Positions 16,671 through 37,564 of a DNA stretch of 43,194 nt are shown here, piece after piece; position 1 is the first letter of the stretch; each line of letters starts with the position of its first letter. The position numbers and the translations under genes were made by a program. The DNA is from Oscillospiraceae bacterium (GTDB taxonomy: Bacteria > Bacillota > Clostridia > Oscillospirales > Oscillospiraceae). The notes under the pieces were generated by a model. That model was given only the letters and a program-made list of their open reading frames with translations, was not told the origin of the DNA and ran no database searches. The stretch covers positions 1 through 43,194 of the forward strand of contig JAFUGY010000070.1 in assembly GCA_017469115.1 (NCBI GenBank). The letters are read 5' to 3'.

Positions 16671-17519
16671 CTATTCTTCAATAAAGAGAACACCCAGCGT
16701 CTTCGGCCCGCAGTGGGAGGAAACCGTGCACCCGGCAACCGTGTGGTGGACTTCTTTACAGCCGGTGAGCTGTTTGATGAGCGCTGTCAGCTCTTCCAGC
16801 ACGGCAGGCTCCACTTCACCGGATTCCGTGAGGAAGACATGACCCGGGCGAACTTTCTTTCCGGAAAGGCGTTCGGTAATGTATTGCTTGTAGACTCGAG
16901 CCATGTTGCCGCGATATTTTTTATAGACTTCCAGTTTACCGTTTCGCATCTCCAGCCCCGGTTTGATTTTCAGCAGATTGGCGCCGAAGGCGGTGACGCC
17001 GGTGCAGCGTCCGCCTTTCCACATGAATTCGAGGGTGTCGAGCACAAAACTGGTGGAAACCTTGCTTCTGAGATCACTGAGATGTACCGCAAGATCAAAA
17101 GCGCTCATGCCGCGGTCACGGCATTCGGCAGCCTCGATTGCAAGAAGCCCGATGCCGGTGGAGAGCATGGTGCTGTCAATTACATAGACACCGCTCAATT
17201 CCGAAGCTGCGAGACGCGCAGCATTGTAGGTGTTGGAGAGTTCTGCGCTGATGTCGAGATGAACGAGTTCATATCCCTGCTCGACAAAGGGGCGGAAGAA
17301 ATCAAGAAAATCCTGAACGCTGGGAGCGGAAGTTTTTGGCAGGGTTCCGTCTGCACGGTATCGAACATACATGTCTGCAGGCGTGAAAGATTCCCCGTCC
17401 AGAAAAGTGGAATCTCCGAGAGTGATCGTGAGGGGGATTACATGAATCTGATAGCGGGAACACAGTTCCGGCGATAGATCGCAGGTGCTGTCTGCAGTGA
17501 TGATGACGGGCTTGCTCAT
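16671..17519 (-). CDS. DegV family protein (fatty-acid binding)
   Basis: This 282-aa cytosolic protein starts SKPVIITADSTCDLSPELC, the DegV signature, and holds TSAPSVQDFLDFF and SHCGPKTLGVLF near the C-terminus. Family members bind a fatty-acid molecule between two domains; some (FakB) present it to fatty-acid kinase FakA. No fakA gene is visible here, so the acceptor is unknown. It lies 15 bp after the pyrophosphatase gene and ends with UAG, showing that UAG is a working stop in this genome. Confidence 0.9.
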   Translation of the reverse strand: MSKPVIITADSTCDLSPELCSRYQIHVIPLTITLGDSTFLDGESFTPADMYVRYRADGTLPKTSAPSVQDFLDFFRPFVEQGYELVHLDISAELSNTYNAARLAASELSGVYVIDSTMLSTGIGLLAIEAAECRDRGMSAFDLAVHLSDLRSKVSTSFVLDTLEFMWKGGRCTGVTAFGANLLKIKPGLEMRNGKLEVYKKYRGNMARVYKQYITERLSGKKVRPGHVFLTESGEVEPAVLEELTALIKQLTGCKEVHHTVAGCTVSSHCGPKTLGVLFIEE

Positions 17520-17534
17520 GATCGATTGTCCTCC

Positions 17535-19139
17535 TTATCCCCAAAGTGCTGTCAGCATGGGGATGATCTGTTTTTTACGGCTCATAACACCGGGCAGAAA
17601 CATTTCATGGTTTTTGGGAGTAACATTGAAAGCCTGCTGCATGACATCGTCGTTGCCGAGATAGATCAGGTAAGAGCCCTCCAGCAGAACGTCTGTCAGC
17701 ATCAGGATGACAATATCCAGCTCCTGCATGTCACGAAGCTTTTCCATAACGGTCAGGAATTCCTCCTTGCGGGAAAGCAGCGCGGAAGAGTCGGCACAGG
17801 TGATTTGCCCGACGCCGAGGCTCTGCCCCGAGATGTGGAAGAGCTTATAGTCCATCCGCATGAGTTCTTCGGCGGATTTCTCTGCAGTACCGGAACTCGA
17901 GAATAGCTCTTTGCCGAGCTGCTCAATGGAGATGCCGGCAATTTTGGAGAGGCGTTCCGCCATGGCGATGTCTTTTTTCGTGCAGGTGGGAGACTTGAAC
18001 ATGACCGTATCAGAGAGAATGGCGGCTGCCATCAAACCGGCAATCTTGGGAGACGGAATCACACCGTATTCCTGATACATGGAAGTGAGAATGGTGTTGG
18101 TGCTGCCGACCGGCTCATTGCGTACGGAAACAGGCATGGTCGTCTGAATGTCGGCGAGGCGGTGGTGGTCGATGATCTCCATGATCTCAACCTGATCCAG
18201 CCCGACAACAGACTGGGCTGCTTCGTTATGATCCACCAGCACAACTCTCTTGCGGCGCGGGCGAAGCAGATGGAAACGGGAAAGTGTGCCGACAACGTGC
18301 TCGTTTTCATCCAGAACCGGATAAGCGCGGAAGCGGCTCTCGAGAAGCACTTCCCGCACGTCATCCAGATAATCACTGAGATGGAAGCAGACGATGTTTT
18401 CCGTGTGGCAGATTGTTTTGATCGGCTGTGCCTGATAGATGACGCGGGAGACAATCCGGCCGTCAAGCGGTGACGAGATGATGCACGGAGTTTCCAAAGA
18501 TGCCCATTCCGGCTTCACCTCCGCCTGGCAGAGTATGACGCAGCCGGCGCCATGACCGATGGCGCGCTCCACGGCATCGGGCTGATTGCCGCAAATGAGA
18601 ATGCCGTCTTTGCAGCGGCCGCTTTCAAAAGCCGAAGGGAGAGCGACGACCACATTCCCGGAGACGGAATTGACTGTATTGTACAGCTCATTGACAACGC
18701 GCCCTTCGATGACGCTTAACAGGTTAAAAAGCGGAAGCTCATCCACCTGGCTGGAATAGACAGTCTGCATATCGAAGGAGGCAATATCCCCCGCGGAAAT
18801 GACACCGTAAAGAGTGCCGTCATCATTTAAGATGGGGAGAGAGGCTACTTCATTGTTGCGCATGGTATTCCATGCAAGATTGATGGGTACGGAGGCATTC
18901 AGTTCAGGAGGGGTGTCAAAATCAAGATCACTGACCTGTGTGCGCATATCTTTAACAAACGGTGGAGGATCGAGGCCCAGGAGATCGAGAATGTGACGGG
19001 TTTCGTCATTGATGGAACCGATACGGACTGCTTTATATTCCCTGTCGCCTATTGCGTTGCGCAGATTGGCATAAGCAATGGAGGCGGCAATCGAATCGGT
19101 ATCGGGGTTGCGGTGACCGGTGACATATATTTCTCCCAT
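17535..19139 (-). CDS. CBS-domain manganese-dependent inorganic pyrophosphatase
   Basis: A 534-aa family II pyrophosphatase. The N-terminal DHH part has the metal ligands in VTGHRNPDTDSIAASIAY. An insert of about 240 residues carries two CBS domains around a DRTGG-like module (about 70-305), which in characterised enzymes binds adenine nucleotides and Ap4A-type regulators. The DHH core resumes with LVDHNEAAQS and IMEIIDHHRLAD, and ends in a DHHA2 domain. It hydrolyses pyrophosphate to drive biosynthesis under nucleotide control, and heads the DegV-GtrA operon. Confidence 0.92.
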   Translation of the reverse strand: MGEIYVTGHRNPDTDSIAASIAYANLRNAIGDREYKAVRIGSINDETRHILDLLGLDPPPFVKDMRTQVSDLDFDTPPELNASVPINLAWNTMRNNEVASLPILNDDGTLYGVISAGDIASFDMQTVYSSQVDELPLFNLLSVIEGRVVNELYNTVNSVSGNVVVALPSAFESGRCKDGILICGNQPDAVERAIGHGAGCVILCQAEVKPEWASLETPCIISSPLDGRIVSRVIYQAQPIKTICHTENIVCFHLSDYLDDVREVLLESRFRAYPVLDENEHVVGTLSRFHLLRPRRKRVVLVDHNEAAQSVVGLDQVEIMEIIDHHRLADIQTTMPVSVRNEPVGSTNTILTSMYQEYGVIPSPKIAGLMAAAILSDTVMFKSPTCTKKDIAMAERLSKIAGISIEQLGKELFSSSGTAEKSAEELMRMDYKLFHISGQSLGVGQITCADSSALLSRKEEFLTVMEKLRDMQELDIVILMLTDVLLEGSYLIYLGNDDVMQQAFNVTPKNHEMFLPGVMSRKKQIIPMLTALWG

Positions 19140-19335: not shown

Positions 19336-20745
19336 ATGTATAAACGGCAAACCATCAGCGCGGAGGAAATCGCGCGACAGAGAGCACTCTGTGAAGAAAT
19401 ATTCGAACGCATCAATGCTTCCAGAGCGCATCCGCTCGCTATGGTGGATACCTAGGGCTGTCAGCAGAATGAAGCCGACAGTGAAAAAATCAGAGGGTAT
19501 CTTGCTGAGATGGGATACGGTTTTACCCAGAATGAGTTTGAGGCAGATGTAATCGTGGTGAATACCTGCGCAGTGAGAGAACATGCGGAAATGCGCGTTC
19601 TCGGAAACGTCGGGGCGCTTAACCACACAAAAAAGGCGAAGCCGGAACAGATCATTGCGGTGTGCGGCTGCATGGTGCAGCAGGAGCACATGACCGAAAA
19701 AATTAAAAAATCCTATCCGATTGTAGATCTGGTGTTTGGACCGCACGAACTCTGGCGATTTCCCGAACTGCTGCTGGACGTAATGACCAGGCATAAACGT
19801 GTCTTTGCAACGGCAAGGGACGACGGAGCCGTGACGGAAGGAATTCCCCTGAGAAGAGACGGCAAAGTAAAAGCCTGGCTCTCCATCATGTACGGGTGCA
19901 ACAACTTCTGTACTTACTGCATTGTGCCTTATGTGCGCGGTCGGGAACGCTCCCGTCTGCCGGAGGATATTTTAGCGGAAGCACGCCAGCTGGTAGCAGC
20001 CGGATATAAGGATATTACTTTACTCGGGCAGAATGTTAATTCCTACGGAAAAGATCTGGACAGTGAAACAGATTTTGCAGATCTGATCCGAATGGTGAAT
20101 GACATCCCCGGAGATTTTCTGATCCGGTTTATGACGAGCCACCCGAAGGATGCAACAGAAAAACTCTTCCGCACGATGGCGGAGTGTGAAAAATGTGCTC
20201 ACCAGCTTCACCTTCCGGTTCAAGCCGGAAACGACAGGATCCTGAAGGCGATGAACCGCCACTACGACCGGGAAAAATATCTTACGCAGGTACAACTTGC
20301 CAGACAGTACATGCCGGATCTTGTCCTGACGACGGATATCATTGTCGGATTCCCGGGGGAAACGGAAGAAGAATTCGAGGAGACCATCAGCCTTTGCGAG
20401 GAAGTACGCTTTGATGCCATGTTCACGTTTATTTATTCCAAACGTGTCGGCACACCGGCAGCTTCCATGCCGGATCCCTTTACCCGCGAAGAAAAGCAGA
20501 AGCATTTTGACCGCCTGACCGAGGTGGCCAATCGAATTTCCGGAGAAAAGCACGCCGCCTATATCGGCACACATCAGAGAGTGCTGATTGACGGAGAGAC
20601 GGGCAGGGATGAGTACAATCTGTCCGCCCGCACAAACGGAGGCAGGCTTGTGCATCTGAAAGGGGAGGCAGAGCTGATCGGCCAGTTTCGGAATGTTGTG
20701 ATTACCGGCGGGAATACCTGGGCATTATATGGCGAAGTGGAATAA
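19336..20745 (+). CDS. miaB: tRNA-2-methylthio-N6-dimethylallyladenosine synthase MiaB, interrupted by an in-frame UAG
   Basis: Read from the ATG at 19336 (GACGGAGGA site 7 nt upstream) the frame is open for 470 codons except for TAG at 19453-19455, codon 40. MiaB adds a methylthio group to i6A37 of tRNAs that read UNN codons. All cluster cysteines are intact: N-terminal Cys42 (GCQQNEADSE), Cys78 (NTCAV) and Cys112 (CGCMVQ), then the radical-SAM triad Cys188/192/195 (YGCNNFCTYC), and a C-terminal TRAM region. The TAG falls where relatives have Tyr or Phe in T-(Y/F)-GCQ-N. Re-initiation at ATG 19510 would lose Cys42. Possible explanations: nonsense mutation, sequence error, or read-through. 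Otherwise no decay is seen. Confidence 0.85.
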
Positions 20746-20819: not shown

Positions 20820-23420
20820 ATGGCTGAACTGACACCGATGAAAAGGCAATATCTGGAAATAAAGGAGCAATACCAGGATTGTCTTCTGTTTTTCCGGCTG
20901 GGCGATTTCTATGAAATGTTTTATGAAGATGCCTATGTTGCCTCAAAAGATCTGGACATTGCTCTGACCACCAGAGACAGGAATGTGGAAAACCCGGAAG
21001 AACGCACTCCCATGTGCGGCGTGCCGTATCATGCAGCGGAGACGTATATTGCAAAACTGATCGCGAAAGGGCATAAAGTCGCCATTTGTGAGCAGATGGA
21101 AGACCCTGCCCTGGCAAAAGGGCTTGTAAAGCGGGATGTCATCCGGGTGATCACCCCCGGAACCGTGACGGAAAGCTCGATGTTGGAGGAAAATCGCAGC
21201 AATTATATTTGTGCAGTCTCGCTCAACGGGCAAAAAGGGGGTATCGCTTTCTGCGATATCACAACCGGCGAAATGTGCTGCGCTGCGTTTGAGGAAGATG
21301 CCGTCAGCCATATTCTCAATGAGATGGGCAGGTTTTCTCCCCGCGAAGCGCTTCTCTCCCCGGAGGCAGCACAAAACAGGCAGATTACGGCGTTCCTCGC
21401 GGAAAAACTGAATGCGATGCCGGAAACCGGAGAAGAAAAATTCGCATACACCGGTGCCGCAGAGAGAATGTGTACACAGTTTTCCTACCGATCGGCAGAA
21501 GAGGCAGGATTGCAGGATGCCGAAGGTGCAGTGTGTGCAGTGGGAGCCCTTCTGCAATATATCGATGAAACACAGAAGTTTGAACTGAGTCATGTCAGCC
21601 GTCTGGATATCTTCAACGGCGGGAAATACATGGAGATGGACTGGACGACGAGGCGTAATCTGGAGCTGACGGAAGCACTGCGCAGCGGGGAAAAAAGAGG
21701 TTCGCTGCTGTGGGTTCTGGATCGAACCAAAACGCCTATGGGCTCACGTCTGCTGCGGGCATGGGTGGAACGCCCTCTGCTCTCTGCCGTGGCAATCAGG
21801 CGCCGGCTTGCCGCTGTGGGCGAGCTTGTAAACGACAATGTGAACCGTGCGGAACTGCTGCTGAAGCTCAAAGAAATCAGCGATATGCAAAGGCTCGTAG
21901 GCCGGTGTGTATATGGCACGGCAGGCGGCAGAGATTTGCGGACGCTTGCCAATTGCTGCGCAGCACTCCCGGCAATTCGGACGATTCTTGCAGCTTTTCA
22001 CTGCATGGAACTGCGGGAGATCGGGGCTATGGACGTTCTGGAGGACATCCGACAGTGCATTGATGCAGCCATATGCGAAGAGCCGCCGTTTTCTGTGCGG
22101 GAGGGAGGTATCATTCGACCCGGTTATTCGAAGGAGCTGGATGAGCTGCGAAACGTCCGCGATAACGGGGCACAGATGGTGAAAGACCTCGAGGAACGGG
22201 AGCGGGAACGCACGGGGATCAAAAAGCTGAAAGTCGGCTATAACAAGGTGTTCGGCTACTATATCGACATCCCACGTTCTGCCGGTGATGTGGAGATCCC
22301 GGCAGACTATATCCGGAAACAAACGCTGGTTTCAAACGAGCGATATTTCACACAGGAACTCAAGGAACTGGAAAACACGCTCATGACGTCACGGGAACGG
22401 ATCAATGAGCTGGAATACAACTTTTTCGTTGCGATACGGGATCGCGTCGCTGCGGAAGTAAGCAGAATTCAGGCAACATCGGATGCGGTTGCAAGGCTTG
22501 ATACCCTGTGTTCTCTTGCCGAAACAGCCGTAAGAAACCATTACACCATGCCGGAAATTGACACCTCCGGGACGATTTCCATCACGGAAGGCAGACATCC
22601 GGTGGTGGAACAGACGTTGAAAGATGTGCTGTTCGTTCCGAACGATACCTTCCTGAATACGACAAGTGACCGCGTGGCAATCGTCACGGGCCCCAACATG
22701 GCGGGAAAATCGACTTATATGCGGCAAACCGCTCTGATTGTGCTGATGGCGCAGATGGGTTCCTTTGTGCCGGCGAGATCCGCGACCATTGGAATCGTTG
22801 ACCGTGTGTTCACAAGAATCGGCGCTTCCGATGATCTGGCAGCCGGGCACTCTACCTTTATGGTGGAGATGAACGAGATGGCGAATATCCTGCGGTATGC
22901 CACAGGGTCTTCCCTGCTGATTTTAGATGAGATCGGAAGAGGCACATCGACCTTTGACGGGATGGCAATTGCCCGGGCTGTGCTGGAATACTGTGCAGAC
23001 CGGAAAAAGCTCGGAGCGAAAACAATGTTTGCCACGCATTACCATGAACTGTCTGCCCTGGAAGGCGAGATTGACGGCGTGCGAAATTACAATATCTCCG
23101 CCAAGAAGCAGGGAGGTACGCTTGTTTTTCTCAGAAAGATTCTCAGGGGAGCAGCCGATGACAGCTACGGGATTGAAGTGGCAAAACTCGCCGGGCTCCC
23201 GGATGCTGTGGTAAACAAGGCGAAGGGATACCTGAAGGAATTTGAGGCACAGGGCGTCAGCAGTTTGCCGGAGCACAGAGAGGCAAGTGCACAGATCAGC
23301 TTTGTGGACGTCGGTGTGGATGAGGTAAGAAAAATTCTGGATGCAACAGATCTCAACTCCATCACACCGCTTGAAGCCCTGAACCTATTGGGTGAACTGC
23401 AGAAAAAGGCAAGAGCATAA
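20820..23420 (+). CDS. mutS: DNA mismatch repair protein MutS
   Basis: This 866-aa ATPase recognises mismatches and recruits MutL. Mismatch-contacting domain I has the Phe-x-Glu element in FFRLGDFYEMFYEDA near residue 30; the connector, lever and clamp follow. The ATPase carries Walker A GPNMAGKST from residue 624 and LLILDEIGRGTSTFDG for Walker B, with FATHYHEL as the later His motif. Length is normal for bacterial MutS. The start at 20820 has GAGAGAGG upstream. No mutL follows in this window; miaB upstream is a common neighbour. Confidence 0.97.
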   Translation: MAELTPMKRQYLEIKEQYQDCLLFFRLGDFYEMFYEDAYVASKDLDIALTTRDRNVENPEERTPMCGVPYHAAETYIAKLIAKGHKVAICEQMEDPALAKGLVKRDVIRVITPGTVTESSMLEENRSNYICAVSLNGQKGGIAFCDITTGEMCCAAFEEDAVSHILNEMGRFSPREALLSPEAAQNRQITAFLAEKLNAMPETGEEKFAYTGAAERMCTQFSYRSAEEAGLQDAEGAVCAVGALLQYIDETQKFELSHVSRLDIFNGGKYMEMDWTTRRNLELTEALRSGEKRGSLLWVLDRTKTPMGSRLLRAWVERPLLSAVAIRRRLAAVGELVNDNVNRAELLLKLKEISDMQRLVGRCVYGTAGGRDLRTLANCCAALPAIRTILAAFHCMELREIGAMDVLEDIRQCIDAAICEEPPFSVREGGIIRPGYSKELDELRNVRDNGAQMVKDLEERERERTGIKKLKVGYNKVFGYYIDIPRSAGDVEIPADYIRKQTLVSNERYFTQELKELENTLMTSRERINELEYNFFVAIRDRVAAEVSRIQATSDAVARLDTLCSLAETAVRNHYTMPEIDTSGTISITEGRHPVVEQTLKDVLFVPNDTFLNTTSDRVAIVTGPNMAGKSTYMRQTALIVLMAQMGSFVPARSATIGIVDRVFTRIGASDDLAAGHSTFMVEMNEMANILRYATGSSLLILDEIGRGTSTFDGMAIARAVLEYCADRKKLGAKTMFATHYHELSALEGEIDGVRNYNISAKKQGGTLVFLRKILRGAADDSYGIEVAKLAGLPDAVVNKAKGYLKEFEAQGVSSLPEHREASAQISFVDVGVDEVRKILDATDLNSITPLEALNLLGELQKKARA

Positions 23421-24148
23421 TGGTAAAGAAGGAAATCCGGGAATTCACCAGCACCATGACAGCCCGGGAGAGAATTTTTTCATTGATCTGGTTCCCAATG
23501 CACCTCTTCCTGATTCCCAGGCTTGCCATGCGTCTTCTTGACCGGGGGATCCTCAGCGACAGCCAGGCCAATCTGCTGGTCTACGGAATCGGAGCGGTGT
23601 ATATTCTCCTCACCTGTTTTGGCTTTTTACGGAGAGATTTTGATCCGCTGTGTGATGAACCGCTCTACTGCATTGCGCAGATTGCGCTGTGCTACTGTAT
23701 GATGATGGCATTTAACCTGTGCGCATCCGGCATCCTCTCCGGTATTGAAACACTGGTCGGGCACAGCAGAGAGGTTTCCAACCTGAACAATGAGGCTATC
23801 CTCAATTTGGCGAAGACGGATCTGTCGTCGATCACGGCAATGGCCGTGTTTCTTGCACCTTTAACGGAAGAAGTGCTTTTTCGAGGGGCTGTTTTCGGCG
23901 GAATCCGAAAGAAAAACAGAATCGCGGCTTATGCAGTCAGCATGCTGCTTTTTGCTGTTTATCATATCTGGGGCTATGCCATGGAAGATCCGTCGTACTG
24001 GCTTTATATGCTGCAGTATCTGCCGGCAGCTTTTCTGCTCTGTCGCTGCTACGAACGGACAAATTCCATCTGGTGCAGCATATTCTTCCATATGCTGGTC
24101 AACCACATCTCCATGAAAATGCTGATGTTGCTGGAGGAACTGTTATGA
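23420..24148 (+). CDS. CPBP-family intramembrane metalloprotease
   Basis: A 242-aa membrane protein with about six hydrophobic segments. The CPBP motifs are EEVLFRGAVFGGI near residue 153, FAVYHIWGYAM near 177, and HMLVNHISMKM at the end. Its ATG overlaps the mutS stop by one base (TAATG), and the next gene overlaps its own stop in ATGA, so it is translated from the mutS transcript. It is unrelated in detail to the other CPBP gene at 3012, being shorter. Substrate unknown. Confidence 0.8.
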   Translation: MVKKEIREFTSTMTARERIFSLIWFPMHLFLIPRLAMRLLDRGILSDSQANLLVYGIGAVYILLTCFGFLRRDFDPLCDEPLYCIAQIALCYCMMMAFNLCASGILSGIETLVGHSREVSNLNNEAILNLAKTDLSSITAMAVFLAPLTEEVLFRGAVFGGIRKKNRIAAYAVSMLLFAVYHIWGYAMEDPSYWLYMLQYLPAAFLLCRCYERTNSIWCSIFFHMLVNHISMKMLMLLEELL

Positions 24149-24822
24149 CAAATGCGGAACTTCGCCCGATCGCGACGATACAGAGCGACTTCGGCACAAA
24201 ATTCGGAATCCCGCGTCAATCGGGTATCGTGGAAGAATTGAAGGCGAGAATTGTTTTTGAGCCGGAGTATCGACAGAGTGAAACTCTGCGGGGCATAGAG
24301 GAGTTTTCCCATCTGTGGCTGATCTGGCAGTTTTCGGAAAATGTGGGTGCTGAGTGGTCCCCTACCGTGAGGCCGCCGCGGTTCGGCGGAAATATCCGTC
24401 AGGGGGTTTTTGCCACGCGATCTCCTTTTCGACCAAATTTTCTGGGGCTTTCCTGCGTGAAATTGGAGGCGGTAGAGGAAGTAAAGGGCTGTGGGTTGAC
24501 GCTGCTTGTTTCCGGGGCCGACCTGATGAACGGAACTCCGATTTTTGACATCAAACCGTACCTGCCTTATTCCGATTGTATCCCGGATGCAAAGGATGGG
24601 TTTGCGCCGAGGCCGGATTTCACGCTGCAGGTGGAATTCTCGGAAGGGACGCTGGAACAGATCCCGGAGGAAAAACGGGAGGCGCTGAGAAAAGTTCTGA
24701 TGTGCGATCCGCGCCCGCGATACCATGATGATGAGACGCGGGTGTATGGCATGGAATTTGCGGGAAGGGACGTCCGTTTTCAAGTGAAGGACAGCCTTCT
24801 GACCGTGATTGAAGTATGCTGA
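24145..24822 (+). CDS. trmO: tRNA (t6A37) N6-methyltransferase TrmO
   Basis: A 225-aa member of the TsaA/TrmO family, which uses SAM to methylate the threonylcarbamoyl adenosine at position 37 of some threonine tRNAs. Family features are the N-terminal LRPIATIQSDFGTKFGIPRQSG, RGIEEFSHLWLIWQF, a TVRPPRFGG segment, RSPFRPNFLGLSCVKLE near residue 93, and DIKPYLPYSD. The ATG at 24145 overlaps the previous stop; a longer frame extends upstream inside that gene but lacks family resemblance. Confidence 0.9.
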   Translation: MTNAELRPIATIQSDFGTKFGIPRQSGIVEELKARIVFEPEYRQSETLRGIEEFSHLWLIWQFSENVGAEWSPTVRPPRFGGNIRQGVFATRSPFRPNFLGLSCVKLEAVEEVKGCGLTLLVSGADLMNGTPIFDIKPYLPYSDCIPDAKDGFAPRPDFTLQVEFSEGTLEQIPEEKREALRKVLMCDPRPRYHDDETRVYGMEFAGRDVRFQVKDSLLTVIEVC

Positions 24823-26655: not shown

Positions 26656-27786
26656 CTACTTGACCGTAATGGTAATCTCAGGCGCCGCCTCAGTAAAAGC
26701 GGGAGAGGAAACGGGATAAGAGGTCGGAACCGGATAGGATGTTGAGCCGGGATAAGGAGTTGAAACCGGGTAGGATACTGCACCCGGTGAAGAAACCGGG
26801 GTGGGCACGGAAACCGAAGCCAGCGTGGTTACCGTAGCGGAAACCGCCGGGGAGACCAGAAGCAGCGCTTCTCCGATTCGAAGGGCGGCAAGGGAAGAGG
26901 CGGGGTTCAGCCCCTGAAGAAGAGAACGGACATCTGCGTACCGGATTTGATGTGCTTCGCAAAGTTTTTCTATGGTATCTCCGAAAACAACAGTGTGAGA
27001 GTAGACCTGATAAGCGGCATTGTTCGGCGTTTTGGAAGGGAAAAGGCAGGTCTTGCCGGCGGAAGCCGCAGACAGATCGGAAAGGCTGTTGATCAGGCGA
27101 AGCATGGCGGCAACTTCTTCTGAGTAGAGGATACCGAGCTGCGAGCAAACACTCTGCAGTGATTCTCCGGGAGCCATGGTATGAGCAATCAGATAATACT
27201 CAAAGGTATCCTTGGGAGCAGCGGAAGCCGGGTTGGAAGTGGTTGCCTCAGCGAGGGCTTTCGTGATGGCAGCAGCTGCAGCATCGCTTGACGGAAGGAG
27301 AAGTTCCTGCCCGACGTAGATGGAATTCAAACGGGAATCGGAAGACCAGAGATTGAGTTTTTTTATGGCCTCCTGGCAGACGCTGTAGGTGAGATGATGA
27401 TCCTCACAAATGCTGGAAAGAGTATCCCCCTTCTGAACGGTTACTTTTATGGTATAGGAAGCGGGAATCGCTGCGGAGGATTCGGCATGATAAAGAGCCC
27501 GAATCGAATCGGCATCTGCTCTGGAGCGGGGAAGATAAATCGTCTGGCCGGGGCTCACGGCACTGAGAGCTGCTTCACTGGCAAAACCATTCACAATGAG
27601 AATGGCATCTTTTACAGCATAATAGTCAATACGGCGGCTGTCACACAGATTGCTGACAGTGTCGCCGGCAGAAACCTGCACCTCAATGACATAAGGGCTG
27701 TAGTCTTTCTCCGCAAGGCAAATGCCGGGAAAAGCCGAAAAGAGCAGCGAGAGCAAGGCGAGCAGCCAATGCAGCTTCGTTTTCAT
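26656..27786 (-). CDS. Secreted multi-LysM protein
   Basis: A 376-aa exported protein: signal peptide residues 1-25 ending in CLA, then four LysM-like modules at about 32-90, 107-170, 197-253 and 262-313, seen as VSAGDTVSNLCDS, VQKGDTLSSICEDH, MAPGESLQSVCSQ and VVFGDTIEKLCEAH. LysM binds the glycan of peptidoglycan, so it probably stays at the cell wall. After about residue 313 comes a Ser/Thr/Pro/Tyr-rich tail with a repeated Y-P-(V/G)-(S/P)-(T/S) pattern. No catalytic domain is present. It overlaps the preceding membrane protein gene by 4 bp and ends with UAG. Confidence 0.85.
   Translation of the reverse strand: MKTKLHWLLALLSLLFSAFPGICLAEKDYSPYVIEVQVSAGDTVSNLCDSRRIDYYAVKDAILIVNGFASEAALSAVSPGQTIYLPRSRADADSIRALYHAESSAAIPASYTIKVTVQKGDTLSSICEDHHLTYSVCQEAIKKLNLWSSDSRLNSIYVGQELLLPSSDAAAAAITKALAEATTSNPASAAPKDTFEYYLIAHTMAPGESLQSVCSQLGILYSEEVAAMLRLINSLSDLSAASAGKTCLFPSKTPNNAAYQVYSHTVVFGDTIEKLCEAHQIRYADVRSLLQGLNPASSLAALRIGEALLLVSPAVSATVTTLASVSVPTPVSSPGAVSYPVSTPYPGSTSYPVPTSYPVSSPAFTEAAPEITITVK
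26695..26790 (-). repeat. Short tandem codon repeats encoding a YPVS/T tail
   Basis: The 3' part of the LysM gene repeats an approximately 18-24-nt unit that encodes SYPV/PYPG-type motifs. The tail may change in length by slippage or recombination. Confidence 0.6.
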
Positions 27787-32736: not shown

Positions 32737-33536
32737 TGGATCGGAACAGAGATCTTGATCAGGAACTGGCGGATCGCTTGGGCGAGAGTGAAGTACCCTA
32801 TGTGTTGGAGCCGGCCAGGATTCTCAGATTGGTCGAAAACAAATCCGCCGGTTTGACAGAAAGGAAAAACCAGATGATACGAGCAAAAAGATGGAAGGCA
32901 GTCCTCCTCGCAGCGGCAGCGGTGTTGATCCTCACCGTCGGGGCATATGCCGCAAACGGGAAAGTGACACATGTGTTCAGTTCCGGGCCGTCTTATGAGT
33001 TCCCGACCTATCAAGCGCTGCCAAGTGCGGAGCGGTGCAGGAAAGATGCGGGTTTTGATGCCGTATTGATCCAGGCGTTTGCAAACGGATATGCCTTCCA
33101 GGGCGGATCCCTGCTGGAGAACAAGCTGATGGACGATGACCTCATCCCGGTGGAAGAATACAAATCTTTAAACTTCCGATATGAAAAAGAGGGAGATCTC
33201 ATCTATTTCAATCAGGAGAAGTACGCCACCGAAATGGAAGAACACTTTCCTCCTCAGGAAAGGAGAACGATCAACGGAATTGAAGTCAATTACAGAAGCG
33301 CCAGGCACAAAGCAGTGCCGGAGGGATATATCCCGTCGGAGGAAGAGCAGAAGGCGATGGAAGACGGTAACCTCTCCTTCGGTTATGGTGGCCCGGATCA
33401 GGAAATCGTAGAAAGCGAGACACAGATTCTGCTCTGGCAGATCGGTGAAATGCACTATGAGCTTTTCCAGATGAACGGAGCATTGACGCCGGAGGAGCTG
33501 TTTGGCATGGCAGAAGAATGCATCCCGGCGGAATAG
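32736..33536 (+). CDS. Single-pass membrane protein, probable anti-sigma partner
   Basis: A 266-aa protein with about 48 cytosolic residues, one hydrophobic segment at about 49-68 (VLLAAAAVLILTVGAYAA) and an extracellular part of about 195 residues, acidic and Tyr-rich. Its coupling to the ECF sigma gene and topology suggest it restrains that sigma factor and senses an external cue. I see no known anti-sigma domain, and its outer domain shows no clear similarity to that of the other pair at 24894. The start follows AAGGAGGA; it ends with UAG. Confidence 0.7.
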   Translation: MDRNRDLDQELADRLGESEVPYVLEPARILRLVENKSAGLTERKNQMIRAKRWKAVLLAAAAVLILTVGAYAANGKVTHVFSSGPSYEFPTYQALPSAERCRKDAGFDAVLIQAFANGYAFQGGSLLENKLMDDDLIPVEEYKSLNFRYEKEGDLIYFNQEKYATEMEEHFPPQERRTINGIEVNYRSARHKAVPEGYIPSEEEQKAMEDGNLSFGYGGPDQEIVESETQILLWQIGEMHYELFQMNGALTPEELFGMAEECIPAE

Positions 33537-36961: not shown

Positions 36962-37564
36962 ATGAAAAGAATAACACGATTTTTAGTTGTAGTGTTTCTA
37001 ATAATTACATTTTCTATTGGAAATGCAAGCTATGCATTCGCATCGTTAAAGTATACTCCAGATTATTCCACGTCAAAAGAAGTCAACAGTTATTATCTGA
37101 ATGACTATTTTCAAGAGTTTTGTAATTTAAAATGGCATGAAGAAACTAGTGAATCTACTGCGGAGTGGTTACGTGATAATAACTTGTATCATGAAATTAT
37201 ATGGGAAGATGGGTTCGTTTCTGAAATTAAAGTATCAAATAAGGATAAAAGTATTCCGATATATGAAATATATACGTCATATTCCACAATAACAGTAGAG
37301 GACTTATCCCTTGGATTTAGCCACGATAGCGGAAAAGCGCTTTTAGAAAATGCATCATTTACTACACCGGAGAGTTTGGCGAAACTTATGAAGTATTATG
37401 AGCATTTTTATGATGTAGAGATAGAAATGATCGGCGATGATACAGATTATCCATGTGCCATGCTTAGTGGTGATTATTTTACTATTCTTATTGCTCAGCT
37501 AAGTGAAGGACACTGCTATGTTTTATATTGGATTGCGCCTAAGGTTATCTACTATAACCCTTAG
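36962..37564 (+). CDS. AT-rich secreted cargo protein, unknown
   Basis: The only substantial rightward gene in the element apart from the transposase. The 200-aa product has a signal peptide (MKRITRFLVVVFLIITF up to ASYAFA, residues 1-27) and a soluble acidic, Tyr-rich mature part with two cysteines. A perfect AAGGAGG site and a TATAAT (36934-36939) precede it; the -35 box is weak. Codons are far more A/T-rich than in the his operon, consistent with separate origin. No family is recognised. It reads like an accessory gene expressed by the integrated element. It ends with UAG. Confidence 0.75.
   Translation: MKRITRFLVVVFLIITFSIGNASYAFASLKYTPDYSTSKEVNSYYLNDYFQEFCNLKWHEETSESTAEWLRDNNLYHEIIWEDGFVSEIKVSNKDKSIPIYEIYTSYSTITVEDLSLGFSHDSGKALLENASFTTPESLAKLMKYYEHFYDVEIEMIGDDTDYPCAMLSGDYFTILIAQLSEGHCYVLYWIAPKVIYYNP

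What the first reader, a model, noticed from the sequence alone, without database searches (positions are those of the whole stretch)
19441..19470. In-frame UAG replaces the conserved Tyr/Phe next to the first cluster Cys of MiaB
Codon 40 of an otherwise intact miaB is TAG (19453-19455). The upstream 39 codons are protein-like, a good ribosome site marks the ATG at 19336, and the downstream sequence continues exactly as expected (GCQQNEADSE). UAG ends other genes here (DegV at 16671, the LysM gene at 26656, the membrane protein at 33536, the cargo gene at 37564), so the code is not reassigned. A TAC or TAT to TAG change is one base. Options are a fresh loss-of-function mutation, an assembly error, or regulated read-through. 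MiaB itself modifies tRNAs that read UNN codons, including tRNA-Tyr, the natural near-cognate of UAG, so read-through that depends on MiaB activity would be a feedback loop; that part is speculative.
Basis: partly seen in the sequence, partly recalled or inferred. Interest (0 to 1): 0.75.

Follow-up and report, generated by a model that had tools for sequence, protein, structure and literature searches.

The report
Isolated stop codon in miaB
One draft genome of an uncultured gut or rumen bacterium carries a lone premature stop codon in an otherwise healthy-looking tRNA-modifying gene, most simply a very recent loss-of-function mutation or an assembly error and not a new kind of decoding.

Summary
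The TAG at 19453-19455 is really there, in frame, at codon 40 of the only MiaB gene found in this genome. It is private: 139 of 139 MiaB rows from other loci that span the codon have Tyr (124) or Phe (15), and none of the 88 other congeners with an above-cut-off match lists a stop. The rest of the gene shows no decay: 0 of 219 genus-invariant positions are changed and the amino-acid change load matches that of the nearest relative. So the stop is very young, suppressed, or an error. Recoding has no support: TAG ends genes at about the relative's rate, RF1 is present though split over two contig ends, PylS was not found, none of 26 tRNAs has a CUA anticodon (set incomplete), and miaB is the only one of 53 relative-matched genes with a mid-gene stop. 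The RNA after the stop is not unusually folded. The proposed MiaB feedback is unsupported; one study (passages read) reports more stop read-through without miaB under tobramycin. Verdict: fresh null allele or assembly/strain-mixture artefact; raw reads would decide.

The parts
19336..20745 (+). miaB reading frame (469 codons plus TAA) interrupted at codon 40
   Evidence: (479.4 bits, 1 TAG inside)
19336..19452 (+). 39 codons before the stop; align with the N-terminal part of congener MiaB proteins; no Pfam family of its own
19453..19455 (+). in-frame TAG where congeners have a Tyr codon
19456..20742 (+). rest of the frame: UPF0004 domain with cysteines at residues 42, 78, 110 and 112, radical SAM CNNFCTYC at 188-195, TRAM domain
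   Evidence: which cysteines bind the cluster is recalled, not tested
19510..20742 (+). first in-frame ATG after the stop; a product from here would lack Cys42 and has no clear ribosome site
20820..23420 (+). mutS, intact neighbour

Best explanation
A single, very recent base substitution created a nonsense codon in miaB of the sampled strain or of a large part of its population. Translation starts at 19336 and ends after 39 residues; no clear re-start site lies between the stop and the loss of the first cluster cysteine, so the cell most likely makes no functional MiaB and carries i6A37 (MiaA is intact) in place of ms2i6A37 in its UNN-reading tRNAs. Shown: the stop, its uniqueness among the relatives examined, and the absence of decay. 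Inferred: that the base is real in the organism, and the tRNA consequence (from the known MiaA-MiaB pathway).
For: Of 101 congeners (G000 included) 89 have a match over the MiaB cut-off and only G000's lists a stop (two of the 88 others, G028 and G079, are partial matches that do not reach this codon). Tyr in every congener row spanning the codon, Tyr or Phe in 139 of 139 rows from other loci. Only one match over the cut-off in the genome. 0 of 219 genus-invariant positions changed after the stop. Own branch 12 amino-acid to 68 silent changes against 18 to 87 on the sister branch, Fisher P 0.84. Freedom from selection for 3% of the branch gives P 0.034, or for 10% P 0.008 if all 9 ambiguous changes are laid on this branch. 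Only gene of 53 relative-matched G000 genes with a mid-gene stop. miaA intact. Deletion of miaB is tolerated in Vibrio cholerae (passages of PMC12588516).
Against: The genome is a draft of 148 contigs, 89% complete, so a wrong consensus base cannot be excluded. MiaB is kept in most congeners (89 of 101 drafts over the cut-off), so a null allele should cost something. No second assembly of the same species was at hand.
Confidence: 0.55

Rival explanations
1. Assembly or consensus error, or a minor-strain base taken into the consensus of a metagenome-type draft; the living organism has an intact miaB.
For: Draft genome, 148 contigs, 89% complete, 2.6% contamination; gene without any decay; PMC11017572 (abstract read) reports that many internal-stop pseudogenes in public assemblies come from assembly errors and low coverage.
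Against: No other mid-gene stop among 53 relative-matched genes, so the assembly is not generally error-ridden; but a real young null allele would look exactly the same.
Confidence: 0.36
2. The UAG is read through at a useful level by a near-cognate tRNA (Tyr or Gln) or by an amber suppressor tRNA, so that MiaB is still made.
For: Full conservation downstream; only 26 tRNA genes were found, none for Tyr, Trp, Phe, Cys, Ala, Ile or Asn, so a suppressor in the unassembled part is not excluded.
Against: No CUA anticodon among the 26; TAG ends 33 of 403 long ORFs against 25 of 242 in the nearest relative, so it is not markedly avoided; RF1 pieces present; RNA after the stop not unusually folded, z -0.24; the TAG is not conserved.
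Confidence: 0.05
3. UAG has been reassigned to an amino acid (Tyr, Gln or Pyl) in this lineage.
For: RF1 is split over two contig ends, C134 and C70, with about 40 residues missing.
Against: Both RF1 pieces align with relatives' prfA to, or within a few bases of, the contig ends, as in an ordinary contig break; no PylS match in the genome; no other in-frame UAG among 53 relative-matched genes; TAG terminates many ORFs.
Confidence: 0.01

Closest known systems
tRNA (N6-isopentenyl adenosine(37)-C2)-methylthiotransferase MiaB (TIGR01574)
   Same: Whole frame apart from one codon: UPF0004, radical SAM and TRAM domains, CxxxCxxC motif, next to mutS
   Different: Carries an in-frame TAG at codon 40
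Recent nonsense alleles and internal-stop pseudogenes of bacterial assemblies (abstract of PMC11017572)
   Same: One isolated internal stop in an undecayed gene
   Different: Nothing found here that sets it apart; reads not available
UAG recoding with pyrrolysine or suppressor tRNAs
   Same: In-frame UAG
   Different: No PylS match, no CUA tRNA found, no further in-frame UAG in the genes compared, not conserved

Membership tests
MiaB methylthiotransferase | score above the curated TIGR01574 cut-off | tested here: met
   475.3 bits for the part after the stop, cut-off 355.3
MiaB methylthiotransferase | radical SAM CxxxCxxC, N-terminal cysteines, TRAM domain | tested here: met
   CNNFCTYC at 188-195, Cys 42, 78, 110, 112; PF00919, PF04055, PF01938
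MiaB methylthiotransferase | uninterrupted reading frame that yields the enzyme | tested here: not met
   TAG at codon 40
UAG reassignment or Pyl system | PylS or CUA tRNA in the genome | tested here: inconclusive
   no PylS match; no CUA among 26 tRNAs, but the tRNA set is incomplete
UAG reassignment or Pyl system | several conserved genes with in-frame UAG | tested here: not met
   miaB only, of 53 distinct relative-matched genes (72 alignments) in about 625 kb
Programmed read-through | stop and context conserved between relatives | tested here: not met
   0 of 139 rows from other loci have a stop at this codon
Recent null allele | stop supported by raw reads | not testable with these tools

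The most novel reading that the evidence does not exclude
Probability: 0.02. Interest if true: 0.75.

Novelty: already known. Interest (0 to 1): 0.1.

Why it matters
It matters little by itself: it is a good example of how one stop codon in a single draft genome can look like recoding, and how uniqueness among relatives plus absence of decay points to a very young change or an error. If it were real read-through, it would be a rare case of a tRNA-modifying enzyme controlled by the decoding that it tunes.

Tried and rejected
Code reassignment: rejected on RF1 present, no PylS match, normal TAG use, no other in-frame UAG among the genes compared. My first count, TAG in 4 of 126 terminal stops, came from a filtered subset of strongly coding ORFs and made UAG look rare; the wider count was 33 of 403. 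That wider set is the longest non-overlapping stop-to-stop ORFs and may hold some shadow ORFs. The codon-score search for interrupted genes was not specific (29 candidates, which I take to be mostly neighbouring genes or shadow ORFs; not each checked) and was replaced by homology.

Rows dropped before the in-frame stop count: 5 of 77 matched queries, holding 10 of the 30 stops (2 of them TAG). Their mismatches fall mainly on codon position 1, as in ORFs antisense to real genes. Of the 20 stops in the 72 kept alignments, 4 are the miaB TAG met by four queries; the other 16 lie near the start of six alignments. For five of these six a start codon follows within 10 codons of the last stop, and the sixth (window 19142, TAA) lies just before the ATG at 19139 of its gene; I read them as 5' leaders.

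Gene decay: rejected. Second MiaB copy: none over the cut-off; the other hits are paralogues of 292.7 and 266.4 bits and one weak match of 18.7 bits. Re-start downstream: the first in-frame ATG (19510) has no clear ribosome site and drops Cys42. RNA structure after the stop: not unusual. Pairwise dS estimates failed or were saturated, so I used polarised counts; these are rough parsimony counts. Plasmid records gave 6 distant matches, none covering 80% of the query. A paper search for miaB with 'premature stop' and 'pseudogene' gave 0 papers; searches gave listings of which I saw the abstract of PMC11017572 and passages of PMC8779196 and PMC12588516.

Full report
Observation. The frame starts at ATG 19336, meets TAG at 19453-19455 and then runs open to TAA at 20743-20745, just before mutS at 20820. 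The part after the stop is MiaB by the curated model (475.3 bits, cut-off 355.3) with UPF0004, radical SAM and TRAM domains.

Genome. The window is contig C76 of a 2.64 Mb draft in 148 contigs, 89% complete, 2.6% contamination. The best-matching public genome records are Oscillospiraceae, Clostridiales and Ruminococcaceae metagenome assemblies, many from rumen or gut samples; I did not obtain the organism's own name, and that it is a metagenome assembly itself is inferred. It has one MiaB over the cut-off, two lower-scoring paralogues without stops and one weak match.

Relatives. Of 101 congeners including G000, 89 have a match over the MiaB cut-off; only G000's lists a stop. Two of the 88 others (G028, G079) are partial and do not reach this codon. 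A second search over 102 congeners matched 97 at the DNA level, a few of them only by short stretches; the closest, G055, has 79% nucleotide identity. In one search the 170 loci then held included 26 tRNA loci and one weak match; the other 143 gave a row across codon 40: 2 are the window gene itself (TAG), 2 are paralogues (Leu), and 139 are MiaB of others, with TAC 107, TAT 17, TTC 10 and TTT 5. Some of the 139 are the same gene reached through two or three searches; among loci L005-L034 and L036-L064 (59 loci) there are 48 distinct congener sequences.

Age. After the stop, 219 positions are invariant in the 48 distinct congener rows and G000 departs at none; each other species, tested the same way, departs at 0 to 2. 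Changes polarised with seven outgroup rows give 12 amino-acid and 68 silent changes on the G000 side against 18 and 87 on the G055 side, with 9 amino-acid changes unassigned. If the gene had been free of selection for 3% of the branch, 12 or fewer changes would have P 0.034; laying all 9 unassigned changes on this branch moves the limit to between 5% (P 0.28) and 10% (P 0.008). Silent sites are near saturation, so these figures are rough. Either the stop is young, or it is suppressed, or it is an error.

Recoding. RF2 is whole; RF1 is in two pieces at the ends of contigs C134 and C70, both still aligning with relatives' prfA to or within a few bases of the contig end, with about 40 residues between them missing from the assembly. 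PylS gave no match in G000; in the 14 control genomes the same model gives some match in 13 and one over its cut-off. The 26 tRNA genes found have no CUA anticodon, but none for Tyr, Trp, Phe, Cys, Ala, Ile or Asn was found, so the set is clearly incomplete. TAG ends 33 of 403 long ORFs in the sampled G000 stretches and 25 of 242 in G055. Relatives' ORFs (403 queries) matched about 625 kb of G000 in 77 cases, 72 with a coding-like substitution pattern, which are 53 distinct G000 genes in 16 loci. The only stop inside the body of a gene is the miaB TAG, met by four queries; 16 further stops sit in 5' leaders of six alignments, and the 5 dropped queries, with 10 stops, look antisense.

Mechanism. 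Most likely translation ends after 39 residues and no active MiaB is made. MiaA is intact, so tRNAs would carry i6A37 without the methylthio group; this follows from the known pathway and was not tested. The Vibrio cholerae study reports a marked increase of stop read-through in the miaB mutant under tobramycin, UGA being the codon most affected overall (passages read, PMC12588516); a review reports lower efficiency of CUA suppressor tRNAs in miaA mutants, which leans the other way (passages read, PMC8779196). Neither tests this gene, and the stop is private to this genome among those examined.

Verdict. An ordinary, isolated and very young nonsense allele (0.55) or an assembly or strain-mixture artefact (0.36); functional read-through about 0.05. 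Raw reads over 19453 decide between the first two.

Noticed in passing
G000 contigs C134 (end) and C70 (start), loci L201 and L202: prfA (RF1) of this genome is split by a contig break with about 40 residues missing; both pieces align with relatives' genes up to, or within a few bases of, the ends.
   Followed up: yes
window 24073-24822 (+): TrmO, another enzyme of tRNA position 37 (function recalled), lies two genes downstream of mutS, after a CAAX-protease-like gene (23420-24148), so two A37-modifying genes sit close together.
   Followed up: no
   Followed up: no
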